Below, in pieces: positions 51,889-64,000 of a DNA stretch of 64,000 bases. The stretch lies in the NCBI GenBank assembly GCA_019358985.1, contig JAHHIJ010000028.1:1-64000 (forward strand), given 5' to 3'. The DNA comes from Tolypothrix brevis GSE-NOS-MK-07-07A (GTDB taxonomy: Bacteria > Cyanobacteriota > Cyanobacteriia > Cyanobacteriales > Nostocaceae). How positions within the stretch are numbered: the first letter of the stretch is position 1; every line of letters begins with the position of its first letter. The position numbers were made by a program, and so were the translations under genes. The notes below the pieces were generated by a model, which ran no database searches, was not told the origin of the DNA, and worked only from the letters and a program-made list of their open reading frames with translations.

Positions 51889-51991
51889 TAGCAGATTCCG
51901 CTTTCATGGAATACAAGAGACGTAGCAGTGCTACGTCTCTACAAGGAGAGGGGTTTTATATATGTACTTCATTTACCTCAAATCTGCTGTA
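51889..51991. repeat. Family D element (AGCAGATT ends)
   Basis: A 103-bp element between TAGCAGATT and AATCTGCTGTA ends with hairpin AGAGACGTAGCAGTGCTACG in the middle and GGGGTTTTATATATGTACTTC on the right. A related copy in opposite orientation lies at about 57632-57740. Confidence 0.75.
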
Positions 51992-51994
51992 TTG

Positions 51995-52286
51995 ATTAGA
52001 CGTAGGATTGCTACGTCTAATCAAGGTTTTCGGGCAACGCATAATAAAAACACATCTCCAGAAAACAATGTAGAGACGTAGGATTGCTACGTCTAATCAA
52101 GGGTTTCGGGCAACGCATAGTTCATTTCCACTCCTATGTCTAAAGAGCGATCGATGTCTATTACAATAGAAAAGATTTTTAATGATGTCCAATAGACATC
52201 TCCAGAAAACAATGTAGAGACGTAGCACTGCTACGTCTAATCAAGGGTTTGGGGCAATGCATAGTTAAATTCGGTCGATGTCCAAT
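51995..52286. repeat. Cluster of family A elements between LPOR and lysR
   Basis: Three copies in a row: a left-truncated fragment at 51995-52045, a full copy at 52051-52142 and a full copy at 52191-52286, all in the same orientation and sharing the core GTAGAGACGTAG..CTACGTCTAATCAAGGGTTT. A short TCGATGTCTA end lies between the last two. The stretch between LPOR and the LysR gene is thus almost entirely small elements. Confidence 0.85.
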
Positions 52287-54047: not shown

Positions 54048-54214
54048 ATAAATTTAATCTAACTGGGGAATGGTGTAGCGTGGCGGAAATAAAGCTACCG
54101 TTCAGAATTCCAAAAGCTCGAATGAGCGAATTGGGCGAATTGGGCGATCGCGTCTTTGACAGAAGAAGGGGTACTACCGATTTTGCGAGATCAACTAAAA
54201 TGATTGCGTATTTG

Positions 54215-54718
54215 TTAGCGTGAAATCAACACATTAAAGCTTTTAACTTCAATCTCCTTCCCTTTATAGGGTACGTAGCAGACATTATGGGAAGCAGTGT
54301 ATTTCCCAGGTATCCATTTACCTGCGACAACAGCATTACAGACATATACGGGTTCACCACCTTTTACGCCATCTGTTCCCCCAGTGATGGCACCTGGGGG
54401 TAGATCAAGATCGCTTGTAAGAGGTGCCCAGTGAAAATTATCTACAACGAGTACTTGATACTTATCGTATCCGGATTCGTTTCCGTTGTGAGGCACATAG
54501 CATTTTTTCTGTTTTGGAACTAACTTTCCAATACCTACACCGATTGAGCAAACATATAAATTTTCACCATCGAACCCACCGACTACAGCTTTTGGAGGTA
54601 CATAACCATTTCTTCCAGTTACCCATCTGTAACCTGCTGCTGCTGGTTGAATAGCTGTCATTACAGCCCCCGTAGCTATGACAACCAAAGTTAATCCCAT
54701 TATCAATTGTTTCTTCAT
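54215..54718 (-). CDS. Secreted DM9/DUF3421 domain protein
   Basis: A 167-residue exported protein with a signal peptide ending PAAAG (about residue 29). The mature part is two DM9-type repeats: WVTGRNGYVPPKAVVGGFDG, then LYVCSIGVGIGKLVPKQKKC, YVPHNGNE and a second copy WAPLTSDLDLPPGAITGGTDG, VYVCNAVVAGKWIPGKYTAS, CYVPYKGKEIEVKSFNVLI. DM9/DUF3421 proteins are best known from insects, flukes and molluscs, where some bind mannose; in bacteria they are rarer. A lectin-like surface or extracellular role is plausible. It lies next to the IS607-type element. Confidence 0.8.
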   Translation of the reverse strand: MKKQLIMGLTLVVIATGAVMTAIQPAAAGYRWVTGRNGYVPPKAVVGGFDGENLYVCSIGVGIGKLVPKQKKCYVPHNGNESGYDKYQVLVVDNFHWAPLTSDLDLPPGAITGGTDGVKGGEPVYVCNAVVAGKWIPGKYTASHNVCYVPYKGKEIEVKSFNVLISR

Positions 54719-54806
54719 CAGCTTAGTAAATTTTTGAGTATTATAATTAATTAAATAAAGTATAGTCTAATATATACATATATCCTCATTTTGCCGTAAA
54801 AGCTGT

Positions 54807-55391
54807 ATGAAGCTCTCAGACTATGCCCAACATCTTGGAATTTCGTACCAAACAGCGTGGCGACATTTTAAGTCAGGAAAAATACCTTACCCAACTCAAA
54901 AGCTACCCTCCGGGACAGTGATAGTTGATTATGTCCAAGATTCAAGTATTGCAATGAGGGGTAATGCTGCTATTTACGCTCGTGTCAGCAGTGCTGAGAA
55001 TAAAGATTATCTAGAGCGTCAAGCACAGTGTTTAACTGCCTACGCAATCGCCAGGGGTTACAAAGTCCAACACATTGTAAAGGAGACTGGGAGCGGATTA
55101 AACGACAATCGAAAAAAACTAGAAGCTCTTTTAAAAAAGGATGACTACGAAATATTAATTGTTGAGCATCGTGACCGACTTTGCAGATTTGGAAGTAATT
55201 ACCTTGATGTCTTGCTTTCCAGATGTGGTGTGACTTTAGATATCGTTAATACAGTTGACGACAAACGCGACGACTTGATGACTGACTTAGTAGGGATAAT
55301 TACAAGTTTCGCAGCCCGTCTTTACGGACAACGACGCGGAAAACGTAAGACTGAAAAAATCATTGCTACATTACAGGCTACTGATGAATAA
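54807..55391 (+). CDS. tnpA: IS607 family serine recombinase TnpA
   Basis: A 194-residue site-specific recombinase. Residues 1-45 form a MerR-like HTH (LSDYAQHLGISYQTAWRHFK). The serine recombinase domain follows, with the nucleophile Ser in YARVSSAENKD (S61), QAQCLTAYAIARGY and the conserved DRLCRFGSNYLD region. Order and length are those of IS607 transposases, so excision/insertion activity is plausible. Whether its substrate ends are still present is unclear because the element's right side has been replaced. Confidence 0.92.
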   Translation: MKLSDYAQHLGISYQTAWRHFKSGKIPYPTQKLPSGTVIVDYVQDSSIAMRGNAAIYARVSSAENKDYLERQAQCLTAYAIARGYKVQHIVKETGSGLNDNRKKLEALLKKDDYEILIVEHRDRLCRFGSNYLDVLLSRCGVTLDIVNTVDDKRDDLMTDLVGIITSFAARLYGQRRGKRKTEKIIATLQATDE

Positions 55392-55435
55392 CTAAAAGAA
55401 TAGTCAAATATATACAATCATGGTATGGTAGAGAA

Positions 55436-56575
55436 ATGGCATACCAAGTTGAACAACATCAAATTAAACGAGGACATCAGTGGTGGGATTACTGTGCGGA
55501 GGTGTGTTTTGCATCTAAAAACCTTTTTAACACCGCTCAATACACTAATCGCCAGAGCTTTATTTATGGTTGTGGTGTATTGACTCAAGCTGAATTAGAT
55601 AAAATGTTTAACTCAGATATCCATTACAAACAGATTCCCGCGAAAGTCAGCCAACTTGTTTTAAAACAAATTAGTGACTCTTGGCAATCATATTTTAAGG
55701 CTTCTTCGGCATGGAAACTTGATTCTTCTAAGTTCACAGGCAAACCAAAAATGCCAGGGTATTTAGATAGAGGTGGACGCAATTTGATTAAGTTCAACAC
55801 TCAAGCTATTGGTGCAAAAGCCTTTAAGAGTGGTGTTATCGTACCATCAAAGTCACCCATTGAGTTACCTGTGAAACCAGGACTAAAGTTTGAGTCAATG
55901 GTTGAAGTTCGCATAGTTCCCAAGACTGGTTGTTATGTAATTGAGGTAGTTTATGACGATGGTAGCAAACTTGCACACATTAATGATACTGGGTTGGCAG
56001 CAGCAATAGATGTTGGTATTGACAACTTAGCTACGATTGTTTTTTCTGACCCAAAAATTCAACCGATTGCAATTAATGGTAAGCCATTAAAGTCTGAGAA
56101 TCAATGGATGAATAAAGAAGTAGAGATATCACAGTTAAAAGGAAAGCGAAATATCGCCATCGTCATGAACGCTTCGACTTTCTCACAAGCCACTGATATC
56201 GACTATTTTATCACCAACGCTTCTACATCAATTGTCACACCAGAATGGATAGTTAATACCTATTCTCAAAGAAATTGGGTGGAAGTTTTTTACAGGGAAG
56301 CTAAGGGTTGGCTAGGACTAAAAGAATATCAAGTCCGGGACAAAAGAAGTCTACTCCGACATTTTACCTTGGTTTTTTGTGCCTATACTTTTATTCTTTG
56401 GCATCAGATGACTGGGGGTTTGAGACGAAGGTGGGCTTCTAAACCTTTGAACACTTTTACTGAAGCTTTAGAAGCCTTCAGAACGGCTATGTCTTATCGT
56501 TTTTTTGATTGGTTGACCCATAATCGTGACGTATTTGCCGCTTATAAAGCTAGTTTGGGCTACATTTGGGCTTAA
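55436..56575 (+). CDS. Chimera: N-terminal TnpB half fused to C-terminal IS701-type transposase
   Basis: A 379-codon open frame with two unrelated halves. Residues about 1-237 match IS607/IS605 TnpB (OrfB): the start QHQIKRGHQWWDYCAEVCFA, QIPAKVSQLVLKQISDSW, the RuvC-I Asp in AIDVGIDNLATIVFSD (D192) and GKPLKSENQW. At about residue 238 (nucleotide ~56147) it switches to IS701/IS4-type sequence: DIDYFITNASTSIVTPEWIV, then TYSQRNWVEVFYREAKGWLG with the catalytic Glu (E288), and the tail LGYIWA. TnpB's RuvC-II Glu, zinc finger and RuvC-III Asp are absent, as are the first two Asp of the DDE enzyme. Neither activity should survive, unless a new function arose. Start ATG at 55436. Confidence 0.88.
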   Translation: MAYQVEQHQIKRGHQWWDYCAEVCFASKNLFNTAQYTNRQSFIYGCGVLTQAELDKMFNSDIHYKQIPAKVSQLVLKQISDSWQSYFKASSAWKLDSSKFTGKPKMPGYLDRGGRNLIKFNTQAIGAKAFKSGVIVPSKSPIELPVKPGLKFESMVEVRIVPKTGCYVIEVVYDDGSKLAHINDTGLAAAIDVGIDNLATIVFSDPKIQPIAINGKPLKSENQWMNKEVEISQLKGKRNIAIVMNASTFSQATDIDYFITNASTSIVTPEWIVNTYSQRNWVEVFYREAKGWLGLKEYQVRDKRSLLRHFTLVFCAYTFILWHQMTGGLRRRWASKPLNTFTEALEAFRTAMSYRFFDWLTHNRDVFAAYKASLGYIWA

Positions 56576-56673
56576 TTTTTGTTTAAGTCCCGTTAGGCTC
56601 ATAAATTATATGGTTTGAGGTTTCTGTAGCGTTAGATTTATTGTATGCACTCAATTATCAAAGATTAATTATT

Positions 56674-56892
56674 ATGAAATTTCAAGTAATTTTCACATTT
56701 GATTCAGAATATGAAGGTTACGTTGCTGAGGTTCCTGAATTTCCTGGCTGTGTAAGCCAAGGTAAAAGGTTGGATGAGGCAATTGAAAATATTAAGGATG
56801 CTATTATAGGTTATCTTCACGTCCAAACCAAGCATGGCAAACCATACGTAGCTAAAGAATTACAAACCTTTATCGGGGAAGTTTTAGTATAA
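56674..56892 (+). CDS. hicB: HicB-type antitoxin (orphaned)
   Basis: A 72-residue HicB-family protein starting MKFQVIFTFDSEYEGYVAEV, with the partial RNase-H-like fold signature VPEFPGCVSQGKRLDEAIENIKDAI (about 17-41). An upstream in-frame Met at 56641 is unlikely. HicB neutralises the mRNA-cutting HicA toxin. The next bases encode a decayed hicA starting exactly at the base after the stop, so the antitoxin is intact while its toxin is broken. No C-terminal DNA-binding domain is present, as in the short HicB class. Confidence 0.88.
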   Translation: MKFQVIFTFDSEYEGYVAEVPEFPGCVSQGKRLDEAIENIKDAIIGYLHVQTKHGKPYVAKELQTFIGEVLV

Positions 56893-56998
56893 ATGGGACG
56901 TTTATCAAATATTTACGTTAAAGAAATTGTTTAAATTTTTGCAAAGTTTGATTCGATAAACAGGAATTACAGTAGATGAATTCCTAGATAATACATGA
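56893..56998 (+). pseudogene. hicA: Decayed HicA toxin gene
   Basis: An ATG directly after the hicB stop reads MGRLSNIYVKEIV, the normal HicA start (compare RLSNVxGKEVVK). An in-frame TAA replaces the expected Lys codon after IV, and IFAKF continues. The middle of the toxin, including the dsRBD-like His region, is missing. In another frame the end GITVDEFLDNT-stop is recognisable at about 56963-56998, the usual HicA C-terminus. Thus a nonsense change plus an internal deletion of about 25-30 codons destroyed the toxin. Confidence 0.8.
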
Positions 56999-57039
56999 AA
57001 ACTAAAAAAAGCGCGTAGTTTACCACCGCAGGCATCGCT

Positions 57040-57627
57040 ATGAATCCACAACTCGCAGATAAAGTCACCACACTCGAAGAACAGCAATTTCTCTTACCTG
57101 GTTATTATACTTGGGAAGAATTTGAGAAAATTGAAGCTTTAACGACATCGCCTAGTTTAAGGATAACTTACCTGGATGGATATATACAATTTATGACTCT
57201 CGGTGAAGAACATGAAATGCTGAAAAAGGCGATCGCTATTTTGCTAGAAGCATATTTCTTTGAACTCAGTATAAATTTTATCCCTGTAGGTAGCGCTACT
57301 CGTCGTTCTCAAGAAAAAGGTGCTTCATTTGAACCTGATGAATCTTATTATTTAGGAGAAAAGAAACAAAATCCCGATTTAGCAATTGAAATTAATATAA
57401 CCAGTGGCAGCATAGATAAACTAGAAAAATACAAACGTTTTCAAATCACTGAAGTTTGGTTTTGGGAAAATAATCAGTTGTCTTTATATCGACTTCGCGA
57501 TGATAATTATCAACAGATTTCTCGTAGTGAATTGCTACCAGAATTAAATGTAAATTTCTTCGCAACTTGTGTTTTAATGCCCTCAATACTTGAAGCAAGG
57601 ACAGAGTTTATTAAAGGAATTCGCTAG
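57040..57627 (+). CDS. Uma2 family PD-(D/E)XK endonuclease-like protein
   Basis: A 195-residue DUF820/Uma2 protein. The core has GYYTWEEFEKIEAL, ITYLDGYIQFMTLGEEHEML, and the nuclease motif DESYYLGEKKQNPDLAIEINITSGSIDKLEKY (Asp..Glu-x-Asn), with the final W-F-W-E-NNQLSLYRL region. The usual second acidic position reads E-I-N here rather than E-x-K, so activity is doubtful. Uma2 genes are strongly amplified in cyanobacteria; the role is unknown. It follows the hicBA remains by about 40 bases. Confidence 0.88.
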   Translation: MNPQLADKVTTLEEQQFLLPGYYTWEEFEKIEALTTSPSLRITYLDGYIQFMTLGEEHEMLKKAIAILLEAYFFELSINFIPVGSATRRSQEKGASFEPDESYYLGEKKQNPDLAIEINITSGSIDKLEKYKRFQITEVWFWENNQLSLYRLRDDNYQQISRSELLPELNVNFFATCVLMPSILEARTEFIKGIR

Positions 57628-57631
57628 TAGT

Positions 57632-57740
57632 GCTACAGCATATTTCAGGTAAATGAAGTACATGTATAAAACCCAAAACCTTGTAGAGACGTAGCACTGC
57701 TACGTCTCTAGGTGTATTCGATTAGATCGATAGGCTGCTG
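57632..57740. repeat. Family D-related element
   Basis: CTACAGCATATTTCAGGTAAATG and GTACATGTATAAAACCC followed by a GTAGAGACGTAGCACTGCTACG hairpin: the inverse-orientation counterpart of 51889-51991. The right end is poorly conserved. From here to 57985 I see no gene. Confidence 0.65.
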
Positions 57741-57985
57741 CTGTAACTCAGCTTCTCTATCAACCCACACGTATAAATTAAATAACTAAGAGCGTAGATA
57801 CCGAAAATACTTTTACCACAGCGTAACTCTTGCTTCATAAGTCTAGATACAATAGTAGCGGGTTAATCTGGAGGACTTGTCTAGTTATGCTGACAAAATG
57901 GGCAATAATCCAAAATTAGCGGATTTTACATAATAATGATTGTTATATAATACTAAACAACTCTTTTCGCGAGGATGGGAAAGCT

Positions 57986-58705
57986 GTGAGGGATGATTTA
58001 GAAGGCTTGGAGATTAGCCAAAAGCAACTACAAAAGTTGACAAATCTACCTGTGAAAGACGAATTAAGGATAATTGTTAACCCGATTAAAAGATTGGGAC
58101 AGTTATTTATAGAAAAAATCAAAGGTTCTGAAGGTGCCACAGTAGTATTTATTGGATTTTCTATATTTGTTTTTAGCTATCTAATATTGGATGTAATGCT
58201 TAAAGTATTTGCTACATGGATAACAATTCCTTCATGGATATTGTTTATAATAATAACTTTATTTGGAGGTGGTATAACGCAAAGTATATTATATTTTTGG
58301 TGGAAAAAAAGAGGTAAGTTTTTGAGAAAGAATATTACACCATCTTTGGAAATTCTTTTAAATGATGTTGACAGATATAATTCTGTAATTAAAGCAATAG
58401 ATATTAACGACCAAATAGAAGAAGCTGGCAATCCTGAAGTAACTTTAAAGGAAAGAGAAAAAGTACTTGACGCACTTAAGCTAACCAGAAATGATTTGAT
58501 TCGCGCTTTGAAAACAGAAAGAGTTTTGAGAGAAAATAAAAATTTTATTATCAAAAATACAGATTTGTTTGCTAACAATTTACCGACTTTATCGGCAATG
58601 CAAGTTAGTGAACAAGCTACTGAACATGGAAGGTTATTAAATGAAGCATTGGAAATTGCCTTAGACGTGCAACTTGAAATGAGAAGGTTGCAGAGTCAGG
58701 GATAA
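57986..58705 (+). CDS. Hypothetical membrane protein with coiled-coil C-terminus
   Basis: A 239-residue protein with a GTG start at 57986. Two transmembrane helices are clear at about 50-75 (ATVVFIGFSIFVFSYLILDV) and 82-105 (WILFIIITLFGGGITQSILY), followed by a basic WWKKRGKFLRKN and a long helical C-terminal part with alternating charge (LEILLNDVDRYNSVIK to EALEIALDVQLEMRRL). I do not recognise a family. It lies in the accessory patch beside Uma2, hicB and the IS607 remnant, with AT-rich composition, so recent acquisition is likely. Confidence 0.6.
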   Translation: MRDDLEGLEISQKQLQKLTNLPVKDELRIIVNPIKRLGQLFIEKIKGSEGATVVFIGFSIFVFSYLILDVMLKVFATWITIPSWILFIIITLFGGGITQSILYFWWKKRGKFLRKNITPSLEILLNDVDRYNSVIKAIDINDQIEEAGNPEVTLKEREKVLDALKLTRNDLIRALKTERVLRENKNFIIKNTDLFANNLPTLSAMQVSEQATEHGRLLNEALEIALDVQLEMRRLQSQG

Positions 58706-58730
58706 AAGTCACGCATTCAAAAGTCATATT

Positions 58731-58823
58731 ATGTCCGGCAAATCACAAATATTGTAGAGACGTAGCAGTGCTACGTCTCTACGACGGTTGTAACGTTTTT
58801 ATTACTGTTAATTAAACGGACAT
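58731..58823. repeat. Family C element (ATGTCCGG ends)
   Basis: A 93-bp copy: ATGTCCGGCAAATCAC, GTAGAGACGTAGCAGTGCTACG hairpin, and TTACTGTTAATTAAACGGACAT. It matches the copy at 27235-27327 except that its hairpin core is of the TAGCA type. Confidence 0.85.
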
Positions 58824-58956
58824 GATATCAAAGGTCAAAAGTCAGATATTTTGCCTTTTACCTTCCTTCCACTCCCCCACTCCTTTTTTCTCTGACACTC
58901 TAGCCGCGTACAGTCTAATATAAATAAATATTAAATTAGAGCGATCGCTCATCGGT

Positions 58957-59724
58957 ATGGACTGGAAAGAAATTCAAGGCAATTGGGTGTTAATTCCCCG
59001 AAATCCCATCGGTATCATCCATTTCCTGGGTGGTGCATTCGTTGCTACAGCACCTCATCTCACCTACCGTTGGTTATTAGAACAACTGGCGGAAAAAGGC
59101 TATGTTGTAATTGCTACGCCATTTGTCAACACATTGGATCATATAGCGATCGCTAAATCTGTAAACTTAAACTTTGATCGCGTTATCGAACGCTTACAGG
59201 ATTCTTCAGCCTTACGCAAGCGCTACCTCCCCATCTACGGATTGGGACACAGCATGGGTTGTAAACTCCATTTACTCATCGGCAGTACCTTGAGTGTAGA
59301 ACGCGCAGGTAATATCCTCATATCCTTTAACAACTACGCTGCACGGGATGCTATCCCCTTAGTGGAACAATTTAACACAACCTTTGCGATCGAGTTCACC
59401 CCCTCACCGTTGGAAACTAACAAGCTTGTGCAAGAACGCTACAACGTCCGTCGTAACTTGTTAATAAAATTTAGCAATGATACCCTTGACCAATCAGCAG
59501 GTTTAAAGGAAATATTACAACAACGCTTTCCAGAGATGGTGACAGTACAAACCCTGCCTGGAAGCCATGTTACACCCTTAGGTCAAGATGTTAAATGGCA
59601 ACCTGGAGCATCCTTCACTCCCATTGATGCTTTGGGACAGTGGTTTAAGCAAGAAGTTTATCGCGACTTAAATCAACTAAAACGCGCTATGCTCTTGTGG
59701 CTGAATCCCCTTTCACCACCATAA
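58957..59724 (+). CDS. DUF1350 alpha/beta-hydrolase-like protein
   Basis: A 255-residue protein of the DUF1350 family found in cyanobacteria and plastids. It begins MDWKEIQGNWVLIPRNPIGI and has the conserved HFLGGAFVATAPHLTYRWLL. The nucleophile elbow GHSMGCKLH (Ser at about residue 104) and a later His (LPGSHVTPLGQDVKW) are consistent with an alpha/beta-hydrolase. The substrate is unknown. It is intact and full length by eye. Confidence 0.87.
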   Translation: MDWKEIQGNWVLIPRNPIGIIHFLGGAFVATAPHLTYRWLLEQLAEKGYVVIATPFVNTLDHIAIAKSVNLNFDRVIERLQDSSALRKRYLPIYGLGHSMGCKLHLLIGSTLSVERAGNILISFNNYAARDAIPLVEQFNTTFAIEFTPSPLETNKLVQERYNVRRNLLIKFSNDTLDQSAGLKEILQQRFPEMVTVQTLPGSHVTPLGQDVKWQPGASFTPIDALGQWFKQEVYRDLNQLKRAMLLWLNPLSPP

Positions 59725-59795
59725 TGTTTTATAACTGTAAAAAATTGGGAATTTATTTTTCAAAATTTATTATTTACTCTTACCCGTAATTTCCC

Positions 59796-60932
59796 ATGTT
59801 TCAAATCGTAGTAATTGATGATGACCGTTCAGTACAAATCCTGCTGAAAAGGATGTTGGAAAAACAGGGTTATGAGGTAATTGCTGCTAGCAACGGTTCT
59901 GAAGGAATCGCAAAAGTAATTGCTTGCCAGCCGGCACTAATTATTTGTGATTGGATTATGCCAGGATTAAATGGGCTGGAAGTCTGCCATCATATCAAGA
60001 CAGATCCGAATTTATCGACAACATTCTTTATTTTATTAACATCTTTAGATTCCGTAGCAGATCGCGTCAAAGGATTAGATGCTGGTGCCGATGATTTTAT
60101 TGCCAAACCCATTGAGCAGAACGAATTGCAAGCACGAGTAAGAGCAGGATTGCGTCTGCATCAATTAAGTCGAGATTTGCAATCTCAAAAGCTACTTTTA
60201 GAAGCGGAAATGGCAGAAGCTGCTGAATATGTGCGTTCTCTTTTGCCTCTACCGATGTCGGAACTCCTCACCATCAATTCTCGCTTTATTCCTTCACGTC
60301 AACTTGGTGGCGATTGTTTCGATTACTATTGGCTCGATCCTGATTATATGGCAATTTATTTACTAGATACTGCCGGACATGGACTTAAAGCCGCTCTTCC
60401 CTCTATTTCTGTGCTAAATTTACTTCGTTCTCGCGCTCTCAAAAGTCTCAATTACTATCAACCGAGTGAGGTATTAAGAGCGTTAAACGACACTTTCCAG
60501 ATGAATTATCAAAATGACAAATATTTCACAATCTGGTATGGAGTTTACAACCGCATCAAGCGTCAGTTAATTTACTCTAGTGCTGGTCATCCTCCAGCAA
60601 TACTAGTATCGGGCAAATCTGTTAATGTTACCGAAGTCAAACAATTAAGAACCCCCGGAATGCCAGTTGGAATGTTTCCGGAAGCAAAATATGTTGATGG
60701 ATTTTGCAATATTGAAGAGTGCAGCACTCTTTATATCTTTAGTGATGGCGTTTACGAAATCACTAAATCAGATGGTACAATTTGGAGTTTAGATGCTTTC
60801 ATTCAGATGCTGGTCGAGTTACAACATAGGAGTGAAAGGCAACTCGACGAGGTACTAAATTACCTAACCAATTTAAACTCCAAAGAGGCTTTTGATGATG
60901 ATTTATCTATTCTCCAAATAAAGTTTGATTAA
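59796..60932 (+). CDS. Response regulator with PP2C (SpoIIE/RsbU-type) phosphatase domain
   Basis: A 378-residue protein. The receiver domain (1-125) has the DDD acidic pocket (VIDDDRSVQ), phospho-Asp in ICDWIMPGL and the Lys in FIAKPI. A short coiled linker leads to a SpoIIE-type PP2C domain (about 160-378) with metal ligands in GGDCFDYYWLD and DTAGHG and the terminal DDLSILQI. Such proteins dephosphorylate STAS antagonists when activated. It converges end to end with a STAS gene on the other strand (stops 60932 and 60933), its likely substrate. Confidence 0.92.
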   Translation: MFQIVVIDDDRSVQILLKRMLEKQGYEVIAASNGSEGIAKVIACQPALIICDWIMPGLNGLEVCHHIKTDPNLSTTFFILLTSLDSVADRVKGLDAGADDFIAKPIEQNELQARVRAGLRLHQLSRDLQSQKLLLEAEMAEAAEYVRSLLPLPMSELLTINSRFIPSRQLGGDCFDYYWLDPDYMAIYLLDTAGHGLKAALPSISVLNLLRSRALKSLNYYQPSEVLRALNDTFQMNYQNDKYFTIWYGVYNRIKRQLIYSSAGHPPAILVSGKSVNVTEVKQLRTPGMPVGMFPEAKYVDGFCNIEECSTLYIFSDGVYEITKSDGTIWSLDAFIQMLVELQHRSERQLDEVLNYLTNLNSKEAFDDDLSILQIKFD

Positions 60933-61262
60933 CTAAATTCTGGAGAGTACATTTTGATTAAATTCTTCTTGGCTGGGAAATATTTCAAATACCTTATCCA
61001 TACCAGTCAGTTCAAATAATATCCTAACTTGTTCATTAATCGAGCAGATAACAAGTTTAATGTCCGCATCTCGTAGAGTTTTGAAGGCTAACACTAAAGC
61101 TCCCAGTCCGGAACTATCTATAAAAGTCACATTTTGAAAATCAACTAAGATAATTTTCGCACCGCTGTCTGCAATTTCACTAATTTCTTGGCGAAACTCT
61201 TGGGATTCACTGGCATCTAAAATTCCACTGGGTTGAAAGACTTTGATTAAAGGACTCATCAT
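60933..61262 (-). CDS. STAS-domain anti-sigma factor antagonist
   Basis: A 109-residue SpoIIAA/RsbV-type protein. The phosphorylatable Ser is in TFIDSSGLGALVLAFK (about residues 48-63), preceded by the beta strand KIILVDFQNV. It toggles between phosphorylated (by an RsbW-like kinase not seen here) and dephosphorylated (by a PP2C) states. Its stop adjoins the stop of the response-regulator PP2C gene, and a histidine kinase is encoded about 350 bases upstream on the same strand, pointing to one module. Confidence 0.93.
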   Translation of the reverse strand: MMSPLIKVFQPSGILDASESQEFRQEISEIADSGAKIILVDFQNVTFIDSSGLGALVLAFKTLRDADIKLVICSINEQVRILFELTGMDKVFEIFPSQEEFNQNVLSRI

Positions 61263-61616
61263 ATCTCAGGCAGTTATTGGTATAAATGATACAGCTTTTG
61301 AATCTGCATGTATGTATCGATCATAATTCATTTGAATAAATGTTGCAAAATAAAAATAATTAATAATTAATAATTAATAATTAATTCACAACCAGCAATT
61401 TGAGATGATAAACAGTCAGGTTGCCCTCGTGAAGTGAGTTTTCTCAGCATGGATGAAAATCTCTTTTTTAGTAGCTGTTTTTTTAAGTCAGGTTGGATGA
61501 CTTAATAATAACTTCATAAAGAAGTAATGTTACGATTAAGTTTAGACGTTCCGCCGTGCTGTACTAGGACGGTTACGATGTTTTTATTACTGTTAATTAA
61601 AGGGACATGATATAAT
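61263..61616. other. Spacer with an AT tandem repeat and a partial family C element
   Basis: Contains a tandem AATTAATAATT run around 61350-61382 (four units) and a left-truncated family C end at about 61540-61608 (CTGTTAATTAAAGGGACAT). No gene or promoter is obvious. Confidence 0.6.
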
Positions 61617-63479
61617 TTATCCTTGGCATAAAGGAATTACAATCATAAATTCAGCGCCGGTTCCTGGTTGTGAAATACATTCCAAAGAGCCGCTATGCCG
61701 ATCGCTTATAATCTGGTAGCTAATGGAAAGCCCCATCCCAGTTCCTTTCCCAATCGCTTTGGTGGTAAAGAAAGGGTCAAATAATCGCGCTTTTACGGCA
61801 GATGGTATACCCAATCCATTATCGGCAATGCTAATTTTGACGCGATCGCCCTCCAGAAGTTCCGTACAAATACGAATCTGCGGGTTTGTCAATTTTTCAG
61901 GCTCATTTACTAACGACTCATCCAAAGCATCGATAGCATTCGCCAAAATATTCATAAATACTTGGTTGAGTTGTCCGGCATAACATTCCACTAAAGGTAA
62001 ATTAGCATATTCTTTGATCACTTCAATCGCTATACGGTCAGGTTTAACTTTGATGCGATGATCTAAAATCATTAGCGTGCTGTCAAGTCCTTCATGGATA
62101 TCTACTTTTTTCATCTCTGCTTCATCCATGCGGGAAAAGGTGCGTAGAGATAAGACAATTTCCCGAATGCGCTCTGCACCAACTTTCATTGATTTGAGAA
62201 GTTTGCGTAAGTCCTCTATCAAGAAATTTAAGTCTATATCTTCAATTAATTCTTGAATTTCGGGAACCGGATCGCCATAATGTTGCTCATATAACTGTAC
62301 TAATCTTAATAAATCTTCGATGTAGTTGTTAGCAAAAGTAAGGTTGCCGAAAATAAAATTGACAGGGTTATTGATTTCGTGAGCAACACCTGCTAAAAGT
62401 TGACCTAAACCAGACATTTTCTCGCTTTGAATAAGTTGTATTTGTGTGCGTTGAAGTTCTTTGAGAGTGTTTTGTAGGTCTTCTGCTTGTTGCTTTAACT
62501 GAATTTCTACTCGTTTGCGATCGCTAATATTAAATGTTGTCCCCACCAATCGATAAATTCTACCTTCGCTGTCTTCAAGGGGATTAATTGTAGTCAACCA
62601 CCAACTTTCTTCACCAAAGAAAGTCAAGCATTCTTCATAACTAATAGACTTAGCTGCTTCTTGGCAGCTTACGAAGTTCCGACGCACTTCTGCACCTTCA
62701 ATTGCACCATGTACAGACTCAGGTGTTTTACCTATTACCTCAGCGCTACTTAGTCCACTGGCGCGTTCTGTAGCTGCGCTCCAACCAACATAGCAAAAGT
62801 CACCATCTTTGAGAACATCGATCACAAATATAGGATTTTCCGAGCCATCAAAGACTGTGCGAAGGAATTCTTTTTGCTGTTGCAGTTGACTTTCTACTAG
62901 TTTGCGTTGCGTAGCTTGCCGATAGGCATAGCTGATGTCTTCGGCTGTAACAAGAATACCTACCACATTACCCTCAGCATCCAGCAGAGGAATTTTATTA
63001 GTATCTACCCATCCTTCCTTGCCATCAGCCGTCTTTAGTGGCTCAATGATATGTAATTCTGCCACACCAGATTCCATCACACGGCGATCGCATTCTCGAA
63101 ACCACTCAGTTTCTTCTTTTTTCCAAGGCAAATCATAGTCACTCTTGCCAATAATATTTTCTGGCAAACCTAAACCTGCAATAGAGGCAAATTTTTGGTT
63201 ACAGCCAAGAAATAGAGAATTTCTGTCTTTCCAAAAAATTAACTGCGGGATGCTATCCATTGCCAACTGCAAAAACTGTTCTGACGATCGCAGTTGATTT
63301 TCTATCTCGATGCGTTTTTTAATTTCTTCCTTCAACTCAACAACCATGCGATTGAGTTCAGCAGTGCGTTCTTCTACCCTGGCTTCTAATTCCTCATTTA
63401 ATTCCTGTCTCGGTGGACAATTATTGCTGAGTACATTTATTTGAGACACAGACTCATTTCTGTTGTTATCGTTTTGCAT
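61617..63479 (-). CDS. PAS-domain sensor histidine kinase
   Basis: A 620-residue soluble kinase. After an N-terminal coiled coil (about 22-65) come two PAS domains (about 67-190 and 205-325), a coiled linker (RKRVEIQLKQQAEDLQNTLK), a HisKA domain with the phospho-His in LAGVAHEINNPVNFIFGN (about 365-382), and a complete HATPase (N box NILANAIDAL, G boxes SIADNGLGIP and GKGTGMGLS). It has no membrane segment. It lies close to the response-regulator PP2C and STAS genes and may feed that unit. The same HisKA sub-type occurs in the truncated gene at 48467. Confidence 0.92.
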   Translation of the reverse strand: MQNDNNRNESVSQINVLSNNCPPRQELNEELEARVEERTAELNRMVVELKEEIKKRIEIENQLRSSEQFLQLAMDSIPQLIFWKDRNSLFLGCNQKFASIAGLGLPENIIGKSDYDLPWKKEETEWFRECDRRVMESGVAELHIIEPLKTADGKEGWVDTNKIPLLDAEGNVVGILVTAEDISYAYRQATQRKLVESQLQQQKEFLRTVFDGSENPIFVIDVLKDGDFCYVGWSAATERASGLSSAEVIGKTPESVHGAIEGAEVRRNFVSCQEAAKSISYEECLTFFGEESWWLTTINPLEDSEGRIYRLVGTTFNISDRKRVEIQLKQQAEDLQNTLKELQRTQIQLIQSEKMSGLGQLLAGVAHEINNPVNFIFGNLTFANNYIEDLLRLVQLYEQHYGDPVPEIQELIEDIDLNFLIEDLRKLLKSMKVGAERIREIVLSLRTFSRMDEAEMKKVDIHEGLDSTLMILDHRIKVKPDRIAIEVIKEYANLPLVECYAGQLNQVFMNILANAIDALDESLVNEPEKLTNPQIRICTELLEGDRVKISIADNGLGIPSAVKARLFDPFFTTKAIGKGTGMGLSISYQIISDRHSGSLECISQPGTGAEFMIVIPLCQG

Positions 63480-63606
63480 ACTCTAAGTCCTTTGTGCTAG
63501 CGTTACATCCACCAATAGAAGTAAATTCGATACACCATTGTTGTAACTTTCAAGGCGATCGCTTCTAGTTTACTATTCCCAATCTTTTTAATTTGTCAAC
63601 ATTTTA

Positions 63607-63702
63607 ATTAGACATCGACCGAATTGAACTATGCGTTGTCCCAAACCCTTGTAGAGACGTAGCACAGAATAGTCTCTACATTGTTTTCTGGAGATGTCTA
63701 TT
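63607..63702. repeat. Family A element, opposite orientation
   Basis: ATTAGACATCGACCGAATTGAACTATGCG, AAACCCTTGTAGAGACGTAGCAC, then TTTTCTGGAGATGTCTA. The hairpin core has decayed (GTAGCACAGAATAGTC). Confidence 0.8.
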
Positions 63703-63774
63703 GGTATTAGTGGTTAGTTGATGGTTGTGAGGATAATCCCCCTTGTCCCCCTTGTCCCCCCCCTCTCCCCTCTC

Positions 63775-64000
63775 TCAAACTAAACTGACTTTAGCTCGAT
63801 AAAGCAACCTATCACCTTGACGGTAGCCTGTATAACGTATCTTGACTTTTTCTCCAGGTTGTGCAGTGCCTTCCATCAATTGATGTATCTGGGGATCATA
63901 GGATAATTCTGCTCCCACGGGTGCGATCGCTTCCACTTTCCATTCTTGTAATAATTTTTCTAAAGGTTTTTGTACCAAAGGCAATATTTTTACCGCTGCT
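63775..64000 (-). CDS. GrpE-like protein, C-terminal part only
   Basis: The reading frame runs off the right edge, so only the last 75 residues are visible. The end EKVKIRYTGYRQGDRLLYRAKVSLV resembles the C-terminal beta-strand domain of cyanobacterial GrpE-like nucleotide-exchange proteins (compare GY..GDR.LR.A.V). HQLMEGTAQPGEKV fits the region before it. It could be the main GrpE or a second paralogue. A dnaK gene may lie beyond the edge. The identification is tentative because the helical N-terminal part is missing. Confidence 0.5.
   Translation of the reverse strand, partial: AAVKILPLVQKPLEKLLQEWKVEAIAPVGAELSYDPQIHQLMEGTAQPGEKVKIRYTGYRQGDRLLYRAKVSLV

What the first reader, a model, noticed from the sequence alone, without database searches (positions are those of the whole stretch)
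55436..56575. In-frame chimera of TnpB (RNA-guided nuclease ancestor) and an IS701-type DDE transposase
Seen directly: one uninterrupted 379-codon frame whose first ~237 residues are IS607-type TnpB and whose remaining ~140 are the C-terminus of an IS701/IS4-type transposase. Known: TnpB needs three RuvC acidic residues and a zinc finger, and its guide RNA overlaps the 3' end of the gene and element. Here only RuvC-I Asp192 is kept and the 3' half with the guide region is gone. The DDE part keeps only its last acidic residue (E288 in YREAK). The fusion stays open with no stop or frame slip, which is unlikely after random joining unless recent or maintained. It may be a recent recombination product or a protein co-opted from two transposases; the TnpB part still holds the N-terminal nucleic-acid-binding region.
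Basis: partly seen in the sequence, partly recalled or inferred. Interest (0 to 1): 0.82.

Follow-up and report, generated by a model that had tools for sequence, protein, structure and literature searches.

The report
Inversion breakpoint that fused two transposons
The apparent hybrid protein sits where a roughly 14.5-kb piece of a cyanobacterial genome flipped around and joined fragments of two ordinary mobile elements, so it is most likely a dead by-product and not a new protein.

Summary
The 379-codon frame is real: IS607-type TnpB N-terminus joined at about 56113-56121 to the C-terminus of an IS701-family transposase. It is not an isolated fusion. The missing TnpB C-terminus lies on the same contig at C69:71080-71356, opposite strand, beyond the window. 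The DNA between is inverted relative to relatives: the two stretches now at its outer left side and far right end lie on opposite strands 7-249 bp apart in 29 of the first 30 other genomes listed, but 16 kb apart on one strand here. Relative G078 has an uninterrupted site matching the outer flanks of both tnpB pieces, so they belonged to one element. The chimera is the left breakpoint of a lineage-specific inversion. No second fusion was seen (0 of 182 loci). The frame keeps one RuvC acid and one DDE acid, and its guide-RNA end is 14.5 kb away. An open frame is unsurprising (phase 1/3; 0.6 stops expected per 1% neutral change). Most likely a non-functional remnant.

The parts
54737..55435 (+). 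Left end of an IS607-type element with an open tnpA serine-recombinase frame (ORF 54807-55391, 194 aa)
   Evidence: Start of the match to the IS607 copy on C56; ORF; Pfam Resolvase E 4e-19
55436..56121 (+). tnpB 5' part (about 229 codons), RuvC-I Asp192 kept
   Evidence: Protein match, 89% identity to residues 1-238 of the C56 TnpB; alignment
56113..56121 (+). Junction: zone where both parents match, consistent with 5-9 nt of microhomology (exact parents unknown)
   Evidence: tnpB match runs to 56121, IS701 matches start at 56113-56117 in most rows; sequences
56117..56592 (+). 3' end of an IS701-family element: last 152 codons of its transposase, stop codon and right inverted repeat
   Evidence: blastn to L013, L014, L016; inverted-repeat match 56565-56595 to the left end of L013; sequences
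56593..56596 (+). TTAG, probable right copy of the 4-bp target duplication of the IS701
   Evidence: TTAG or ATAA flank both ends of three relatives L013, L014, L016 (by eye); TTAG and the following bases without the IS701 in G078 C147 near 6299
56597..64000 (.). Window part of the inverted segment; the whole runs to about C69:71080, where the tnpB 3' part 71080-71356 lies on the minus strand
   Evidence: Synteny with relatives; TnpB residues 364-451 at C69:71102-71365 minus

Best explanation
An IS607 element (tnpA, tnpB) had inserted near a methionine aminopeptidase gene, and an IS701 had inserted at a TTAG site about 14.5 kb away. A rearrangement then inverted the segment between them. Its left join put the first ~229 codons of tnpB in phase with the last 152 codons of the IS701 transposase, giving the chimeric frame. 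At the right join the last ~85 codons of tnpB were left facing the other way, and the middle of tnpB, the 5' part of IS701 and some native DNA were lost. Shown: the two parents, both ends, the inverted order, one original IS607 site. Inferred: the recombination route (a direct short-homology join between tnpB and IS701, or recombination between two IS701 copies followed by deletion) and that the product does nothing useful.
For: tnpB 3' part on the same contig, opposite strand. In 7 of 7 relatives from which stretches were fetched, the aminopeptidase stretch (to C69 ~54069) is followed by C69 ~71030 running backwards. In 29 of the first 30 other genomes listed the two stretches lie on opposite strands 7-249 bp apart (rows, gaps recomputed; the 30th, G080, had no aminopeptidase row listed). 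G077 and G078 also show the other ancestral contact, ~57.0 or ~56.6 kb beside ~71.5 kb, at about 1.8 kb. G078 C405 has a sequence without the IS607 that matches the flank left of 54737 and then 15 bases (AACACAGCAGACTCT) of the flank beyond the tnpB 3' part. No second fusion: listed rows, and 0 of 182 loci held.
Against: The right end is not a clean mirror: instead of the IS701 5' half there is ~126 bp with an IS630-like HTH fragment, and ~620 bp present in G078 has no match on C69 50-80 kb, so more than one event took place. The empty-site match on the right side is short (15 bases, then the two sequences part). In G126 the far stretch (window 57037-57629) lies elsewhere, about 30 kb on the other side, so gene order there has changed too. 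The assembly is a draft of 74 contigs, three of which end inside IS701 copies; reads were not available. Only 4 synonymous and 1 non-synonymous changes could be placed on this branch (IS701 part), too few to exclude constraint.
Confidence: 0.9

Rival explanations
1. Domesticated chimeric protein: the TnpB N-terminal nucleic-acid-binding part plus the IS701 C-terminus is expressed and kept for a function such as DNA binding or repression.
For: The frame is open; the tnpA frame upstream is open; the IS701 part differs from its closest relative mainly at synonymous sites (omega 0.045).
Against: Low omega includes the time before the join. No listed row joins both halves in 217 family genomes (own included, two candidates per genome scored, list cut) or 388 order genomes (junction-centred query), apart from the own genome, and neither half meets the other in 182 loci held (the 80 loci included). 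Viral contigs gave no relative. The guide-RNA end lies 14.5 kb away in opposite orientation.
Confidence: 0.05
2. Assembly chimera: tnpB and IS701 pieces wrongly joined by the assembler.
For: Draft assembly; three contigs end inside IS701 copies.
Against: The second end, with the tnpB 3' part and its flank, is on the same contig. Relatives of tnpB and IS701 share only a few bases at the join, which gives an overlap assembler little reason to join them there.
Confidence: 0.05
3. Recombination between two IS701 copies, one inside tnpB and one at the TTAG site, inverted the segment; later deletions produced the tnpB-IS701 join. This is a variant inside the best explanation, in which the fusion is a secondary deletion.
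For: Eight further stretches of this genome match the IS701 part. Inversions between inverted IS copies are common (general knowledge; PMC5372343 seen only as title and start of abstract).
Against: No IS701 end was seen by eye at either edge inside tnpB.
Confidence: 0.3
4. Simple deletion between tnpB and an IS701 lying downstream, without inversion.
For: Would give the same left junction.
Against: The tnpB 3' part with its flank is 14.5 kb away in opposite orientation, and the order in relatives shows the inversion.
Confidence: 0.03

Closest known systems
IS607-family element with TnpB of the D-hydrophobic-G and alternative-glutamate type
   Same: tnpA and tnpB side by side; the C56 copy has the RuvC-I Asp, a glutamate in EESYTSK and an Asp in ADVNG, which fits, by inference, the arrangement described in PMC10711439 (passages seen)
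   Different: Here tnpB is split; only the first catalytic Asp is in the frame. The RuvC-I motif is DVG (DIG in C56), not DPG, so it is not a pro-Fanzor as defined there
IS701-family transposase
   Same: Last 152 codons, stop, right inverted repeat and a TTAG flank
   Different: First ~268 codons and the left inverted repeat absent
IS-associated inversion creating a chimeric frame at a breakpoint (general knowledge)
   Same: Inverted segment with mobile-element fragments at both ends
   Different: No intact inverted IS pair remains at the ends; the join shows only short homology
TldR, nuclease-dead TnpB repressors (recalled; listing and abstract start seen)
   Same: TnpB-derived protein without a complete RuvC site
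   Different: No adjacent guide-RNA end, no conserved family found, half of the protein gone

Membership tests
Active RNA-guided TnpB | Complete RuvC Asp-Glu-Asp triad | tested here: not met
   Only Asp192 in the frame; glutamate region not found on C69 50-80 kb, last Asp in the fragment at 71.1-71.36 kb
Active RNA-guided TnpB | Guide RNA overlapping the 3' end of tnpB and the element end, beside the gene | tested here: not met
   The 3' end is 14.5 kb away on the other strand. Rfam matched no guide RNA in the window stretch or the four loci searched, so the RNA itself was not tested
IS701 transposase | Whole DDE transposase | tested here: not met
   Only the C-terminal 152 codons; Pfam DDE_5 (residues 20-228 of L013) not matched
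IS701 element | Both inverted repeats and a target duplication | tested here: not met
   Right repeat and TTAG present, left end absent
Inversion breakpoint | Two stretches in contact in relatives, separated and re-oriented here, with element remnants at both ends | tested here: met
   the right end is eroded
Domesticated gene or TldR-like | Conserved orthologues with kept frame | tested here: not met
   None seen
Domesticated gene or TldR-like | Expression and function | not testable with these tools
   No RNA or protein data

The most novel reading that the evidence does not exclude
A newborn chimeric gene: the inversion created an expressed protein in which the TnpB N-terminal nucleic-acid-binding part with an IS701 C-terminal region acts as a DNA- or RNA-binding regulator, for instance of the neighbouring IS607 TnpA or of related IS607 copies elsewhere in the genome.
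Probability: 0.03. Interest if true: 0.6.

Novelty: new member of a known kind. Interest (0 to 1): 0.12.

Why it matters
As it stands, it shows how a rearrangement between mobile elements makes a convincing-looking hybrid reading frame, and that such a frame should be checked against gene order in relatives before a function is proposed. If the chimera were expressed and kept, it would be a new gene caught at its birth.

Tried and rejected
Rejected: simple deletion (the tnpB 3' part is elsewhere and inverted). Rejected: a recurrent fusion (no second case). Several tblastn matches and one row (G506) reach a little across the junction; tested apart, with residues 1-226 and 233-379 and E up to 1e-3, no locus has both halves (17 and 126 of 182 loci; 2 and 78 of the 80 loci; G506 fetched). 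Rejected as evidence: low omega (0.045 for the IS701 part against its nearest relative, 0.083 for the tnpB part against C56), because it includes the time before the join. Dating by the 173/174 identity to a fragment on contig C3 is weak: one fragment. Led nowhere: Rfam (one sub-threshold microRNA match, E 0.13); solved structures by sequence (0 hits up to E 0.1). Structure prediction was not run. Literature searches gave context; passages of PMC11061315, PMC6188088 and PMC10711439 were seen, no paper in full. No claim of absence in print is made.

Limits: one search counted the own genome among 217, scored two candidates per genome and cut its list; one search kept 80 of 86 loci; searches also cut their lists, and rows were compared for the first 30 other genomes only. 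The family is unnamed by the tool; that it is cyanobacterial (Nostocales) is inferred from the named hits.

Full report
Observation. The frame at 55436-56575 is open for 379 codons. At DNA level, window 54737-56121 matches an IS607 tnpA-tnpB copy on contig C56 of the same genome at 86%, and 56117-56596 matches IS701-family elements at 83-85% and up to 91%. The overlap of the two matches, 56113-56121, is consistent with a join at 5-9 shared bases (GAAGTAG and neighbours), but neither true parent is known. NCBIfam assigns residues 17-238 to guided_TnpB and 209-323 to transpos_IS701, both under the curated cut-off. The IS701 right inverted repeat ends at 56592 and is followed by TTAG; three relatives have TTAG or ATAA on both sides (by eye).

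The missing part. A protein search of the whole genome with the C56 TnpB gave 15 matches. Besides C56 itself, ten cover more than 300 residues; one is the window copy; and one is residues 364-451 at 92% identity on the window's own contig at C69:71102-71365, minus strand, 7 kb beyond the window. At DNA level 71080-71356 matches the C56 copy at 94% to the end of the shared element.

One element, not two. In relative G078 (contig C405) the gene homologous to window 54215-54718 is followed by GAGTATTAACACAGCAGACTCT. In this genome GAGTATT is the left flank of the IS607 element at about 54737, and AACACAGCAGACTCT is the flank beyond the tnpB 3' end at 71080. The right-hand match is 15 bases long, after which the sequences part; its position makes chance very unlikely. 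The two tnpB pieces are thus the two ends of one insertion.

Inversion. In the seven relatives from which stretches were fetched (G077, G078, G079, G112, G126, G135, G142), the aminopeptidase stretch (C69 to ~54069) is followed by C69 ~71030 running backwards (7 of 7). In G077, G079, G112, G135 and G142 the backward order continues to about 57-58 kb; for G078 and G126 the fetched stretch ends earlier, and in G126 the far stretch (57037-57629) lies elsewhere. G077 and G078 show the other ancestral contact, ~57.0 or ~56.6 kb beside ~71.5 kb at about 1.8 kb. From rows, 29 of the first 30 other genomes listed have the two stretches on opposite strands 7-249 bp apart (gaps recomputed); for G080 no aminopeptidase row was listed. 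Here they are on the same strand, 16 kb apart. The ancestral order is therefore broken by an inversion of about 56.6-71.08 kb, and the chimeric frame is its left end.

The right end is untidy. Between 71356 and 71483 lies a fragment with an IS630-like helix-turn-helix (Pfam HTH_29 E 2e-07; NCBIfam IS630 E 0.009, below cut-off), with no second copy in the genome. The IS701 5' half, about 126 codons of tnpB and ~620 bp present in G078 (C147 5675-6298) have no match on C69 50-80 kb. More than one event took place, and I cannot tell whether the join arose directly or by deletion after recombination between IS701 copies.

Function. The frame keeps one of three RuvC acids. C56, eight further TnpB relatives of this genome and one Nostoc plasmid copy were aligned with the chimera: all ten have a glutamate in EESYTSK (EESYTSR in the plasmid copy) and no CxxC pair between it and the last Asp; that this is the alternative-glutamate arrangement of PMC10711439 (passages seen) is my inference. 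Cleavage by the IS607 TnpB ISFba1 depends on its RuvC site D194, E290, D371 (PMC11061315, passages seen). The IS701 part lacks about the first two thirds of the transposase. The guide-RNA end is 14.5 kb away in the other orientation; Rfam matched no guide RNA there or in the other loci searched.

Is an open frame surprising? No. Two coding segments joined on one strand are in phase one time in three. A random substitution makes a stop in this frame 5.4% of the time, so about 0.6 stops are expected per 1% of neutral change. The IS701 part is identical at 173 of 174 positions to a fragment on contig C3, which hints at a young age; the upper bound is the split from same-genus relatives, whose matches here are mostly 89-96% identical.

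Uniqueness. Apart from the own genome, no listed row joins both halves in 217 family genomes (own included; two candidates per genome scored; list cut) or in 388 order genomes searched with a junction-centred query; the sets overlap. One row (G506, query 60-194) reaches across the junction, but that stretch has no TnpB half. In 182 loci held, 17 match the TnpB half, 126 the IS701 half, none both. Of 80 plasmid records with a match, 0 cover 80% of the query. Viral contigs gave no relative.

Verdict. A real but ordinary inversion-breakpoint remnant; the co-option reading is not supported.

Noticed in passing
window 51906-52286, 57634-57722, 58753-58828, 61564-61613, 63607-63709; C69 75391-75563: Families of short dispersed repeats, several self-complementary, in direct and inverted copies.
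   Followed up: no
L002 (C56) 2451-2843 and 855-2210: The related IS607 copy has a 451-codon tnpB but a tnpA frame of only 130 codons, against 194 codons in the window copy.
   Followed up: partly
L153 2941-3114 (G000:C3): A 174-bp IS701 fragment with one difference from the window piece and without the right inverted repeat, although other IS701 fragments of the genome are 85-97% identical to the window piece.
   Followed up: partly
L184 6329-7500 (G078 C147): In G078 a ~1.17-kb stretch with two small frames that look by eye like a toxin-antitoxin pair lies where C69 56620 and 56621 are adjacent.
   Followed up: no
window 54183-54743: A small gene and its flanks sit beside the aminopeptidase here but on another contig (C405) in G078, so it probably moved in with or before the IS607 insertion.
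   Followed up: partly
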